From Chryseobacterium endalhagicum (GTDB lineage Bacteria > Bacteroidota > Bacteroidia > Flavobacteriales > Weeksellaceae): DNA of 64,000 nucleotides. The position numbers were made by a program, and so were the translations under genes. This document shows positions 7,260 to 9,101 of the stretch, piece by piece; the first letter of the stretch is position 1; each line of letters opens with the position of its first letter. The notes beneath the pieces are model-generated. The model saw only the letters and a list, made by a program, of their open reading frames with translations, was not told the DNA's origin and did no database searches. The stretch lies in NCBI RefSeq assembly GCF_016745235.1, contig NZ_JAELVM010000003.1:496001-560000 (forward strand), given 5' to 3'.

Positions 7260-7663
7260 GAGGTCTGAAGATGGAAGTTACTAGTAGGCACTAATATTGA
7301 ATATCCATGTTTAAACTTATTAACTCTATTTTAAAAATTAATAAAACCACATTATATTTCTGTTTTTAGGCTTCAATAACCTCCATCTTCGGGCTTCCAT
7401 CTTTCTTACCATAATAAATGCAATTCTATTAACAAACTCATAGTCAAAGCCAAATAAAAGCTTTTAAATACAGGCTTTATTTAGTGTAATCCTAAAATAA
7501 TCAGTTTTTTATTGAAAAATAATTTGCTGGTATTGTATTTTTATCTACTTTTAATATCACAATAAAGTGAACTATTTTTATTGAAATAATTCATCTTTTA
7601 ATGAAACGACACACACCAAAAACTTAGATATACATTTATTACTAACACCAAACTATGAGAATT
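7260..7663. other. Gene-free region upstream of the protein-glutaminase
   Basis: About 400 bases with no gene. GAAGATGGAAG at 7266 and CTTCCATCTTTC near 7395 form a distant inverted repeat around the former end of the serine hydrolase gene. The remainder (7440-7663) is very AT-rich and should hold the glutaminase promoter, but I find no clean TAnnTTTG element. The nearest fits are TACTTTTA near 7550 and a one-base-short TAATTTG near 7520. Confidence 0.4.
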
Positions 7664-8617
7664 ATGAAAAAACTAATCTTATCAATGATGGTATTTGTGG
7701 CAGCCCTGTCATCTAATGCCTGTAAAGATTCTGTTGCAGAGCAGCAGATGATTCAGACCGAAGCTAATAGCAAAACCTTTACAGATCTGGGAAAAACAGT
7801 TCCGGTAGGGATAGAGAATGAAAACGGTACCCTTAAAGTATCCTTCATTGTTACGGCACAGTTCTACACAATCGCTCCTTCAAAGGAAAATGAAAAGTAC
7901 ATCAGCCTGATCAGGGAAGCGGTTAAAAATGAATCTCCTATTCAGGTTTTTATCAAGCCTGGAACGCATGAAATTGCAAAAGTAGAAAAAGGAAACGAAG
8001 AAGATATCCGCTTCTTCAAAGCGGCTTATACAAAAGAGGTTAAAAATGAAACAAACAAATTAACCAGCGTTCTTCCCAACGTAGCTACTCTGAACAGTAT
8101 GTTTAATTTAATCAAAAATCAGGCTTGCGGTACTTCTACGGCATCTTCTCCGTGTATCACTTTCAGATATCCTGTAGACGGATGCTACGCGAGAGCCCAT
8201 AAAATGAGACAAATCCTGATCAACAACGGCTACGACTGTGAGAAACAGTTTGTATACGGAAACTTAAAAGCATCTACCGGAACCTGCTGCGTTGCATGGA
8301 GTTATCACGTTGCGATCCTGGTAAGCTACAAAAATGCATCAGGCGTTACTGAAAAAAGAATCATAGATCCTTCCCTGTTCCCAAGCGGACCGGTTACGGA
8401 TACTGCATGGAGAAACGCATGCATCAACACAACCTGTGGATCTGCCTCTGTTTCTTCTTATGCTAATACTGCAGGGAATGTATATTACAGAAGCCCTAGC
8501 GCATCTTATCTGTATGACAATAATTTAGTGAACACCAACTGTGTCCTGAATATATTCTCATCACTTTCAGGATGTTCACCATCACCGGCTCCAAGTGTGG
8601 CAAGCTGTGGATTCTAA
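7664..8617 (+). CDS. Protein-glutaminase precursor (protein side-chain deamidase)
   Basis: Hydrolyses the side-chain amide of glutamine in intact proteins, releasing ammonia; secreted as an inactive proform. I start at the second ATG (7664) because it gives the same 21-residue signal as the C. proteolyticum enzyme; 317 residues. The propeptide runs to K132, and the 185-residue mature part (from LTSVLPNVATLN) is nearly the same as the C. proteolyticum sequence I recall. The Cys-His-Asp triad is C174 (DGCYARAHKM), H215 (WSYHVAIL) and D235 (RIIDPS), with the same spacing (41 and 20) as Cys156/His197/Asp217 of the known structure. A65 in TAQF corresponds to Ala47, the propeptide residue that plugs the active site. 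Several cysteines suggest disulphides. SNAC at the signal end could be misread as a lipobox. Confidence 0.97.
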   Translation: MKKLILSMMVFVAALSSNACKDSVAEQQMIQTEANSKTFTDLGKTVPVGIENENGTLKVSFIVTAQFYTIAPSKENEKYISLIREAVKNESPIQVFIKPGTHEIAKVEKGNEEDIRFFKAAYTKEVKNETNKLTSVLPNVATLNSMFNLIKNQACGTSTASSPCITFRYPVDGCYARAHKMRQILINNGYDCEKQFVYGNLKASTGTCCVAWSYHVAILVSYKNASGVTEKRIIDPSLFPSGPVTDTAWRNACINTTCGSASVSSYANTAGNVYYRSPSASYLYDNNLVNTNCVLNIFSSLSGCSPSPAPSVASCGF

Positions 8618-8625
8618 TTAACTTC

Positions 8626-8668
8626 CAAAGCTCCTGTCATTAAAAAGCCAGGAGCTTTGTATTAAAAT
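8626..8668 (+). terminator. Strong hairpin between protein-glutaminase and the small lipoprotein gene
   Basis: CAAAGCTCCTG (8626-8636) pairs perfectly with CAGGAGCTTTG (8649-8659) around a 12-base loop, then an AT-rich tail. It starts 8 bases after the glutaminase stop, and the next ATG is only 17 bases beyond the stem. It is most likely a terminator that lets part of the transcription through to the lipoprotein gene. Confidence 0.75.
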
Positions 8669-8675
8669 ATTTTTT

Positions 8676-8987
8676 ATGAAAATCTGGACTTATATACTAT
8701 TCATCCTATTTATGATCACATCCTGTTCCGGCAGTTCAAGTTCACAGAACCTGACCTGGTATAATAACTCGGTTATCACCAATGTAGCTGAAGATCCGGA
8801 AAAACCGGAAGAATTCATGCGGGTATCCATTGGAATAAGTCCGCAGATTTTTTATTTATCTAAAAAAGGAGCAGATTACAAAGCTCTCCTTGAAAAAGCA
8901 AGCCAGAGCCACAAAAAAGGAAAAGCATATAATATAGGTATTGAAAATAATACCAACATTATAAAACAGGTCAATGAAGTTCCGTGA
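8676..8987 (+). CDS. Small lipoprotein resembling the protein-glutaminase propeptide
   Basis: 103 residues with a lipoprotein signal ending in ITSC (lipidated Cys17), so it is likely membrane-anchored outside the cytoplasm. Residues 50-101 (RVSIGISPQIFYLS...DYKALLEKA...NIIKQVNEV) can be aligned by eye with glutaminase propeptide residues 58-110 (KVSFIVTAQFYTIA...KYISLIREA...EIAKVEKG): the same VS start, a Q after the plug position, a Y/F pair, a Y..LL helix and a final I-K-V strand. The plug alanine (A65) becomes P56. It has no catalytic domain. I infer a stand-alone inhibitor or chaperone of the glutaminase encoded 58 bases upstream; the alternative is an unrelated lipoprotein of unknown function. 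Confidence 0.75.
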   Translation: MKIWTYILFILFMITSCSGSSSSQNLTWYNNSVITNVAEDPEKPEEFMRVSIGISPQIFYLSKKGADYKALLEKASQSHKKGKAYNIGIENNTNIIKQVNEVP

Positions 8988-9063: not shown

Positions 9064-9101
9064 AAAATCCCCCATCACAACGCTGATGGGGATTTTATTT
9101 T
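9064..9101 (+). terminator. Terminator after the small lipoprotein gene
   Basis: ATCCCCCATCA and TGATGGGGAT pair around a CAACGC loop, followed by TTTATTTT. It closes the glutaminase/lipoprotein pair. Confidence 0.75.

What the first reader, a model, noticed from the sequence alone, without database searches (positions are those of the whole stretch)
7664..8987. Stand-alone lipoprotein resembling the protein-glutaminase propeptide, encoded next to the glutaminase
The 103-residue lipoprotein (8676-8987) can be aligned over about 50 residues with the inhibitory propeptide of the glutaminase just upstream: VS start, plug region (PG T64-A65-Q66; lipoprotein S55-P56-Q57), Y/F pair, Y..LL helix and final I-K-V strand. 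In the known enzyme, propeptide Ala47 (A65 here) fills the substrate site. A membrane-anchored propeptide look-alike could protect the producer from its own deamidase, act as a chaperone, or hold the enzyme at the surface. I know of no described case of such an inhibitor for protein-glutaminase. The similarity is judged by eye and is moderate.
Basis: partly seen in the sequence, partly recalled or inferred. Interest (0 to 1): 0.85.

Follow-up and report, generated by a model that had tools for sequence, protein, structure and literature searches.

The report
Stand-alone propeptide-like partner of protein glutaminase
A small membrane-anchored protein encoded right behind a protein-deamidating enzyme is predicted to fold like the piece that keeps that enzyme switched off, and may protect the bacterium from its own enzyme.

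Summary
A 103-aa lipoprotein (LP, 8676-8987) follows a protein-glutaminase (PG, 7664-8617). Of 173 genomes of the genus, 105 have PG and 101 LP; all 101 LPs lie 54-95 bp behind PG, same strand (two of these LPs are broken). LP's AlphaFold model (pLDDT 87) matches, among 350,542 PDB chains, the propeptide of pro-PG best (3a54/3a56: Foldseek E 1e-4; VIA Z 11.9, rmsd 1.5 A, 75 residues), ahead of unrelated OB-folds (Z 10.0). Sequence similarity is weak but above shuffled controls. Where the propeptide has T-A47-Q, LP has S-P-Q, S-A-Q or S-Q-Q. LP is under purifying selection (dN/dS 0.13). I read LP as a stand-alone propeptide-type domain, most likely a cognate envelope-bound inhibitor, like SpeB's Spi or Plasmodium SUB1-ProM, but for a deamidase. 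Against: genome-wide profile searches do not link the two proteins, one PG clade lost LP yet kept PG, and my model of the complex failed. Inhibition is inferred, not shown.

The parts
7664..8617 (+). Protein-glutaminase precursor (prepro-PG); alternative ATG at 7655
   Evidence: NF040782 E 5e-132, PF18626 E 3.6e-28, PDB 3a56 E 2e-159
7721..8059 (+). PG propeptide region, from the conserved Cys at the end of the signal peptide (residue 23 counted from 7655) to the mature start
   Evidence: mature form 2ksv/2zk9 aligns from residue 136; [AS]C-x-[DENQ] in 64 of 65 distinct PG sequences
7853..7861 (+). Propeptide plug T-A-Q (A47 in the PDB chain)
   Evidence: register to 3a56, residue checked; that A47 sits in the substrate site is recalled from Hashizume 2011 (paper not held); the title of 3a54 names an A47Q1 mutant
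8060..8614 (+). Mature PG catalytic domain; catalytic triad C177/H218/D238 counted from 7655
   Evidence: C177 and H218 read, D238 counted from the sequence; triad C156-H197-D217 in PMC13298967 and PMC4214742 (passages)
8626..8659 (+). Intergenic RNA hairpin between PG and LP
   Evidence: z -4.8, 0 of 200 shuffles fold as well; 10 of 12 predicted pairs have at least one both-sides change in 27 loci; a like hairpin remains in L106, which has no LP
8676..8987 (+). LP: stand-alone propeptide-like lipoprotein, 103 aa
8676..8726 (+). LP signal peptide and lipobox Cys17 (MITSC)
   Evidence: sequence; [TSIA]SC in 55 of 57 distinct LPs; motif only, no lipidation test
8745..8984 (+). LP OB-like domain (residues 24-103), propeptide fold
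   Evidence: AF2 block pLDDT 88-93 from mature residue 11 on; 3a56_B Z 11.9, rmsd 1.5, 75 residues
8838..8846 (+). LP plug-equivalent S55-P56-Q57 (A or Q at position 56 in other species)
   Evidence: 26 SPQ, 24 SAQ, 7 SQQ in 57 distinct LPs
9070..9091 (+). Terminator-like hairpin downstream of LP (also called on the other strand)
   Evidence: consensus scan only

Best explanation
LP is a stand-alone copy of the PG propeptide domain (OB-like fold, matching residues 19-93 of pro-PG) carried on its own lipoprotein signal peptide and encoded directly behind the enzyme. Shown by computation: predicted fold, conserved linkage, purifying selection. Inferred: it arose from the 5' part of a PG gene and has no catalytic domain. 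Inferred mechanism: LP sits on the envelope as a trans-acting propeptide. PG is exported as a zymogen whose own propeptide fills the active site; extracellular proteases remove that propeptide and free the enzyme. PG that matures too early or returns to the producer meets LP, which docks as the propeptide does and places S-(P/A/Q)-Q at the C177/H218/D238 site, so that the cell's own envelope proteins are not deamidated. My odds: about 0.9 that LP is a propeptide-type domain, about 0.6 that it is a cognate inhibitor; the score below is for the latter.
For: Best PDB match of the LP model is the pro-PG propeptide, by Foldseek (ranks 1-3) and by VIA (Z 11.9 and 11.6, rmsd 1.5). Colinear family and profile matches above controls. 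Linkage 101 of 101, and no LP without PG in 173 genomes. A linked homologue in another genus (G197/L099, E 1.7e-36, 32 bp behind PG) fused to a Big_14 Ig-like domain. Selection on LP (median dN/dS 0.127, 429 of 1275 pairs usable) resembles that on the propeptide (0.135, 346 usable). Plug residues agree: A-Q in the propeptides of the genus apart from two G088 paralogues, S-A-Q in 24 of 57 LPs. Precedents: Spi beside SpeB is a propeptide analogue, and protease and inhibitor are co-transcribed there (PMC2873492, passages); SUB1-ProM is a potent inhibitor (PMC6993865, abstract). For PG of Bacteroides helcogenes the authors found a band taken for the cleaved propeptide with the mature enzyme, either co-concentrated or still attached (PMC13139226, passages).
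Against: No binding or activity data. The read-through pseudo-complex did not fold (pLDDT 54, pTM 0.41, catalytic domain not folded), so docking is untested. Neither profile finds the partner genome-wide, the LP profile finds no PG among PDB sequences, and the window's mature LP alone hits the PG family only at E 0.073. OB-folds are common: enterotoxin B subunits reach Z 10.0, a margin of 1.9; AlphaFold2 may know 3a54 from training (recalled). LP has no counterpart of about residues 94-114 of the propeptide. G047 and G157 keep PG and show no LP remnant; LP is broken in G125 and G146. In G084, G123 and G128 PG is split while LP is intact. The window's LP has Pro, not Ala, at the plug. Pro-PG of B. 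helcogenes is active uncleaved, 17-fold less than mature (PMC13139226, passages), so propeptide inhibition can be partial.
Confidence: 0.6

Rival explanations
1. LP is a membrane-anchored folding helper or export partner for PG (comparable to a lipase-specific foldase, recalled), acting in trans through a propeptide-like surface.
For: Propeptides can help folding (stated for subtilases in PMC6993865, abstract); LP has a lipoprotein signal and is encoded downstream of the enzyme.
Against: PG carries its own propeptide in cis in the LP-bearing loci with a whole PG frame; PG persists without LP in G047 and G157; active PG is made in B. subtilis from pro-PG (PMC13139226, passages; those passages do not mention any LP gene).
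Confidence: 0.15
2. LP is a surface anchor that keeps a fraction of mature PG on the cell, with inhibition incidental.
For: Lipoprotein signal plus binding-type domain; in G197 the domain is fused to an Ig-like domain.
Against: A binder that fills the active site would block what it holds; the plug segment is among the most conserved parts of LP.
Confidence: 0.12
3. LP is an unrelated OB-fold lipoprotein; the match to the propeptide reflects a common fold and the linkage only the shared ancestry of one locus.
For: Weak sequence signal; other OB-folds score within 2 Z units.
Against: Pro-PG is ranked first of 350,542 chains with lower rmsd than the OB-folds next in rank (1.5 vs 2.2-2.5 A); the profile match beats 400 of 400 permutations; the partner is exactly the neighbouring gene in 101 of 101 cases.
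Confidence: 0.08
4. LP is itself a preferred substrate or decoy of PG (Gln at or next to the plug), used as a sensor of PG activity.
For: S-Q-Q in 7 of 57 LPs puts a glutamine where an engineered pro-PG mutant (A47Q1, title of 3a54) has one; Q57 is invariant in the 35-row alignment.
Against: 50 of 57 LPs have P or A at the plug.
Confidence: 0.05

Closest known systems
Propeptide of Chryseobacterium proteolyticum pro-PG (PDB 3a54, 3a56)
   Same: Predicted fold (Z 11.9, rmsd 1.5 A over 75 residues), order of elements, plug motif, signal peptide followed by a Cys
   Different: LP is a separate gene without catalytic domain, has no counterpart of about residues 94-114, 16-18% identity, P or Q instead of A at the plug in 33 of 57 LPs
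SpeB-Spi pair of Streptococcus pyogenes (propeptide-analogue inhibitor encoded next to the enzyme; PMC2873492, passages)
   Same: Stand-alone propeptide analogue in an adjacent gene
   Different: The target here is a protein deamidase, not a protease; SpeB's propeptide and Spi were not compared with LP; LP has a lipoprotein signal
SUB1-ProM of Plasmodium (PMC6993865, abstract)
   Same: Stand-alone propeptide-like protein in a syntenic locus, recognised by structure prediction
   Different: Subtilisin, eukaryote; inhibition was measured there, not here
Bfp/Bfi pairs of Bacteroides fragilis (PMC2873492, passages)
   Same: Same phylum; enzyme zymogens and some inhibitors predicted to be lipoproteins; co-transcribed neighbours
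   Different: Bfi proteins are described as staphostatin-like without identity to propeptides; the target is a C10 protease

Membership tests
PG propeptide domain (fold) | OB-like fold superposing on residues 19-93 of pro-PG | tested here: met
   Predicted model, Foldseek ranks 1-3 of PDB, VIA Z 11.9, rmsd 1.5
PG propeptide domain (fold) | Significant sequence or profile similarity | tested here: inconclusive
   Above controls; partner not found genome-wide, nor among PDB sequences
PG propeptide domain (fold) | Fills the PG active site | tested here: inconclusive
   Pseudo-complex did not fold
NCBIfam PG_glutam_Chrys (whole enzyme) | Score over the curated cut-off of 250 bits; catalytic domain present | tested here: not met
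   18.3 bits, match ends at model position 112 of 321: LP is not a glutaminase
Propeptide-like cognate inhibitors (Spi, SUB1-ProM kind; not one sequence family) | Stand-alone gene next to the cognate enzyme, conserved linkage | tested here: met
   101 of 101
Propeptide-like cognate inhibitors (Spi, SUB1-ProM kind; not one sequence family) | Fold like the cognate enzyme's propeptide | tested here: met
   By prediction
Propeptide-like cognate inhibitors (Spi, SUB1-ProM kind; not one sequence family) | Inhibits the enzyme | not testable with these tools
   Needs an assay
Propeptide-like cognate inhibitors (Spi, SUB1-ProM kind; not one sequence family) | Co-transcribed with the enzyme | not testable with these tools
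   Consistent with it: 58-bp gap, 34 bp of it a hairpin, and the + strand terminator-like site lies only behind LP. The scan also lists one 9-of-12 promoter-like match at 8640-8668; it found 16 such matches in 2 kb against 7.9 expected
Bacterial lipoproteins | Signal peptide with lipobox Cys | tested here: met
   [TSIA]SC in 55 of 57 distinct LPs; a motif count, no predictor run
Staphostatin / Bfi inhibitors | Lipocalin-like fold with a critical glycine | not tested
   No direct comparison made

The most novel reading that the evidence does not exclude
PG and LP form an enzyme-immunity pair: a secreted protein deamidase used against neighbours or hosts, whose producer is protected by a lipid-anchored, trans-acting propeptide. 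In lineages with S-Q-Q the inhibitor would present a glutamine to the active site and may be turned over, making it a timed or product-bound inhibitor. It would be the first propeptide-derived inhibitor that I know of for a protein-glutamine deamidase.
Probability: 0.15. Interest if true: 0.8.

Novelty: new variant of a known kind. Interest (0 to 1): 0.62.

Why it matters
PG is a commercial food enzyme known for its inhibitory propeptide; its natural role is unknown to me. A conserved partner encoded beside it gives a direct test of whether producers need protection from it, a possible specific inhibitor or stabiliser for enzyme production, and an example of a propeptide that has become an independent regulator outside the proteases.

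Tried and rejected
BLASTP of LP with PG gave no in-register match. LP has no Pfam match at E<=10 and no PG among PDB sequences. Searches of the window's own genome with the propeptide and LP profiles did not link the two. A pseudo-complex of mature PG and LP was not folded by AlphaFold2; the alignment was shallow and I draw nothing from it about docking. Weak LP-profile hits in G059, G227, G177 and G316 were not counted as LP: in G059 and G227 they fall on about 40 residues of a 239-residue protein (the G059 one has no Pfam family), G316's on an 804-residue ORF, and G177's has a stop inside. A second candidate pair, a 110-aa protein with a signal-like start 16 bp behind the PG of G889 (L154), scores against the propeptide profile with 1 of 5000 shuffles as good, but 1141 of 5000 are as good against the LP profile; among the 11 genomes searched in that order (most incomplete) no other has PG, so it stays a lead. 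The correlation of LP and PG distances (r about 0.81) is no larger in kind than that within PG (0.80) and says nothing of co-evolution. Pro-PG structure paper (Hashizume 2011): not held; what I say of Ala47 in the substrate site is recalled.

Rows dropped or chosen before counts: the 96 LP and 96 PG rows (many loci held twice) were reduced to 53 LP and 55 PG, two PG rows being fragments; L002 was dropped as a chance hit; one search added 4 LP and 13 PG rows and one search counted 57 LP and 65 PG; one search used the 51 loci with both genes and PG over 300 aa. In one search one PG piece per genome was used where PG is split or duplicated (G084, G123, G128, G147, G088). G125 (L109) was not in the tree. 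Two PG rows with stray tails were left out of the fold alignment.

Full report
What is there. PG (7664-8617; another ATG at 7655) is a full prepro-protein-glutaminase: NCBIfam NF040782 E 5e-132, PF18626, and the crystallised enzyme 3a56 over residues 37-320. LP (8676-8987) follows on the same strand after 58 bp and encodes 103 residues with a signal peptide ending MITSC. LP has no Pfam match.

Is the resemblance real? By sequence it is weak. BLASTP of the two proteins gives nothing in register. But among 18,950 NCBIfam models LP's best is the PG model, colinear over 7-102 against 10-112, E 0.0011, with the signal peptide included and far below the family's cut-off of 250 bits; without the signal peptide the window's LP has it at E 0.073. 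Of 35 mature LPs, 15 match that model at E<=1, best E 1.4e-4; the next family is matched by 5. Profile-profile comparison of LP cores with propeptide cores aligns 55 columns at P 8.7e-5; 0 of 400 column permutations of the LP alignment reach the score of 27.2, and the reversed alignment scores 9.4. A second pair of alignments gives P 1.3e-4. The full-length LP profile (signal peptide included) scores the G244 PG colinearly, 1-102 on 5-110, at E 8e-5 within a small set of ORFs; other PGs there scored between E 4e-4 and about 0.7. Against this, the propeptide profile does not report LP in the window's own genome at E up to 10, nor the LP profile PG, and the LP profile finds no PG among PDB sequences. 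Sequence alone would leave doubt.

The fold is the strongest evidence. AlphaFold2 with 35 LPs gives pLDDT 87.4, pTM 0.71, elements E E E H E E. Foldseek against 350,542 PDB chains ranks pro-PG first, second and third (3a54_A E 1.0e-4; 3a56_A, 3a56_B); the next hit, an enterotoxin B subunit, has 3.4e-3. VIA-align, applied to Foldseek's best 1000 chains, puts 3a56_B at Z 11.9 and 3a54_A at Z 11.6, both rmsd 1.5 A, over 75 and 74 residues, chain residues 19-93; the best unrelated OB-fold reaches Z 10.0 at 2.3 A, and the Flavobacterium PG 8z3i Z 9.6. The fold is OB-like, a common fold, and the margin is modest, but the closest instance in the PDB is the propeptide of the enzyme encoded next door.

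Linkage and distribution. Of 173 genomes of the genus (window's own included), 105 have PG at E<=1e-10 and 101 have LP at E<=0.001. All 101 lie downstream of PG on the same strand, 54-95 bp from the last PG residue to the first LP residue, median 72; no genome has LP without PG, 68 have neither (Fisher p 7.5e-44, not corrected for relatedness). Four have PG without LP: G047 and G157, where tblastn finds no remnant in the stretch read, and G063 and G088, whose PGs are divergent. In G125 LP carries two stops, in G146 it lies in two overlapping frames. G047, G157 and G146 fall with G136 and G154, which keep LP, in one PG clade (99/99), so LP was lost or broken within that clade while PG stayed. 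In G084, G123 and G128 the PG frame is split and LP intact. In the family search (320 genomes) LP is found strongly in 101, namely 100 of the genus and G197 of another genus; four weaker hits were not taken as LP. PG occurs in 107 of the 320. G197's homologue (206 aa, L099) lies 32 bp behind PG, lacks a clear lipobox and continues into a Big_14 Ig-like domain (E 1e-6). In the stretches read, the PGs of Capnocytophaga (L096) and G244 (L100) have no LP beside them. G147 has PG-LP-PG.

Selection. Over 51 loci (1275 pairs), median dN/dS is 0.127 for mature LP (429 usable pairs), 0.135 for the PG propeptide (346) and 0.073 for mature PG (661); median dN 0.223, 0.295 and 0.102. LP is a real gene, somewhat better conserved than the propeptide.

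The plug. PDB residue A47 corresponds to A68 (from 7655) by the alignment. LP residue 56 is aligned to it: S-P-Q in 26, S-A-Q in 24 and S-Q-Q in 7 of 57 distinct LPs. The propeptides read in the genus have (T/S/R)-A-Q except two paralogues of G088 (L103, L104); Capnocytophaga has S-H-Q and G244 S-H-R. In the 35-row LP alignment I, G, I, S, Q, F, Y and two K around the plug are invariant. That A47 occupies the substrate site is recalled from Hashizume et al. 2011 (not held); [quoted passage not shown]

How it most likely works. C. proteolyticum PG is made as an inactive proenzyme, secreted, and activated by extracellular peptidases (PMC13139226, passages); the B. helcogenes proenzyme keeps about a seventeenth of the activity (same passages). 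Of 65 distinct PG sequences 64 have [AS]-C-x-[DENQ] at the end of the signal peptide and the other has FSCSRKD, so pro-PG may itself be a lipoprotein, as predicted for C10 zymogens of B. fragilis, whose maturation would release the enzyme from its anchor (PMC2873492, passages). LP would share that membrane and cap PG that matures near or returns to the cell. Binding in trans is plausible: with mature B. helcogenes PG a band taken for the cleaved propeptide was found, which the authors explain by co-concentration or continued attachment (PMC13139226, passages). The step from fold to inhibition is inference: my pseudo-complex (mature PG, natural intergenic stretch and LP of one locus read as one chain, 31 rows) gave pLDDT 54 and pTM 0.41 with the catalytic domain not folded, and says nothing on docking.

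RNA. A hairpin lies between PG and LP (8626-8659; z -4.8), with both-sides changes at 10 of 12 pairs over 27 loci. The scan did not call it a terminator, whereas a terminator-like site follows LP. A like hairpin remains in L106, which has no LP, so it probably belongs to PG's 3' end; it may lower LP expression relative to PG or protect PG mRNA (inference).

Known kinds. Propeptide-derived stand-alone inhibitors are known for proteases: Spi for SpeB (PMC2873492, passages), SUB1-ProM (PMC6993865, abstract), the I29 inhibitors (PMC4089206, search listing only). I found none for a protein-glutaminase; most subscription papers are not in that library. Hence a new variant of a known kind, with function still to be tested.

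Noticed in passing
window 7664-7732 and 65 distinct PG sequences: A Cys followed by x-D/E/N/Q is conserved at the end of the PG signal peptide (64 of 65), so pro-PG may be a lipoprotein; the literature gives a putative 21-residue signal peptide (PMC6132073, abstract passage).
   Followed up: partly
window 8626-8659: Covarying RNA hairpin between PG and LP, also present in a locus without LP.
   Followed up: partly
L099:2437-3057 (G197): LP-like domain fused to a Big_14 Ig-like domain, directly behind PG in another genus.
   Followed up: partly
L154:3527-3859 (G889): 110-aa protein with a signal-like start, 16 bp behind a PG in a distant genome of the class, weakly propeptide-like: possibly a second stand-alone propeptide.
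   Followed up: partly
L102, L103, L104 (G088): Nine PG matches in one genome, several short and without propeptide match; one ORF between them is a papain-family protein (PF00112) and a neighbour looks alike.
   Followed up: no
L146, L147, L148 (G584, G596, G444): PF18626 proteins without a propeptide match next to transglutaminase-like and circularly permuted ATP-grasp/Alpha-E proteins (scanned in L146 and L148; L147 looks alike): a different setting of this fold.
   Followed up: no
L153:2945-4018 (G826): A PG whose N-terminal half shows two very weak propeptide-like stretches in tandem.
   Followed up: no
L098 (G147): PG-LP-PG arrangement: a second PG copy lies behind LP.
   Followed up: no
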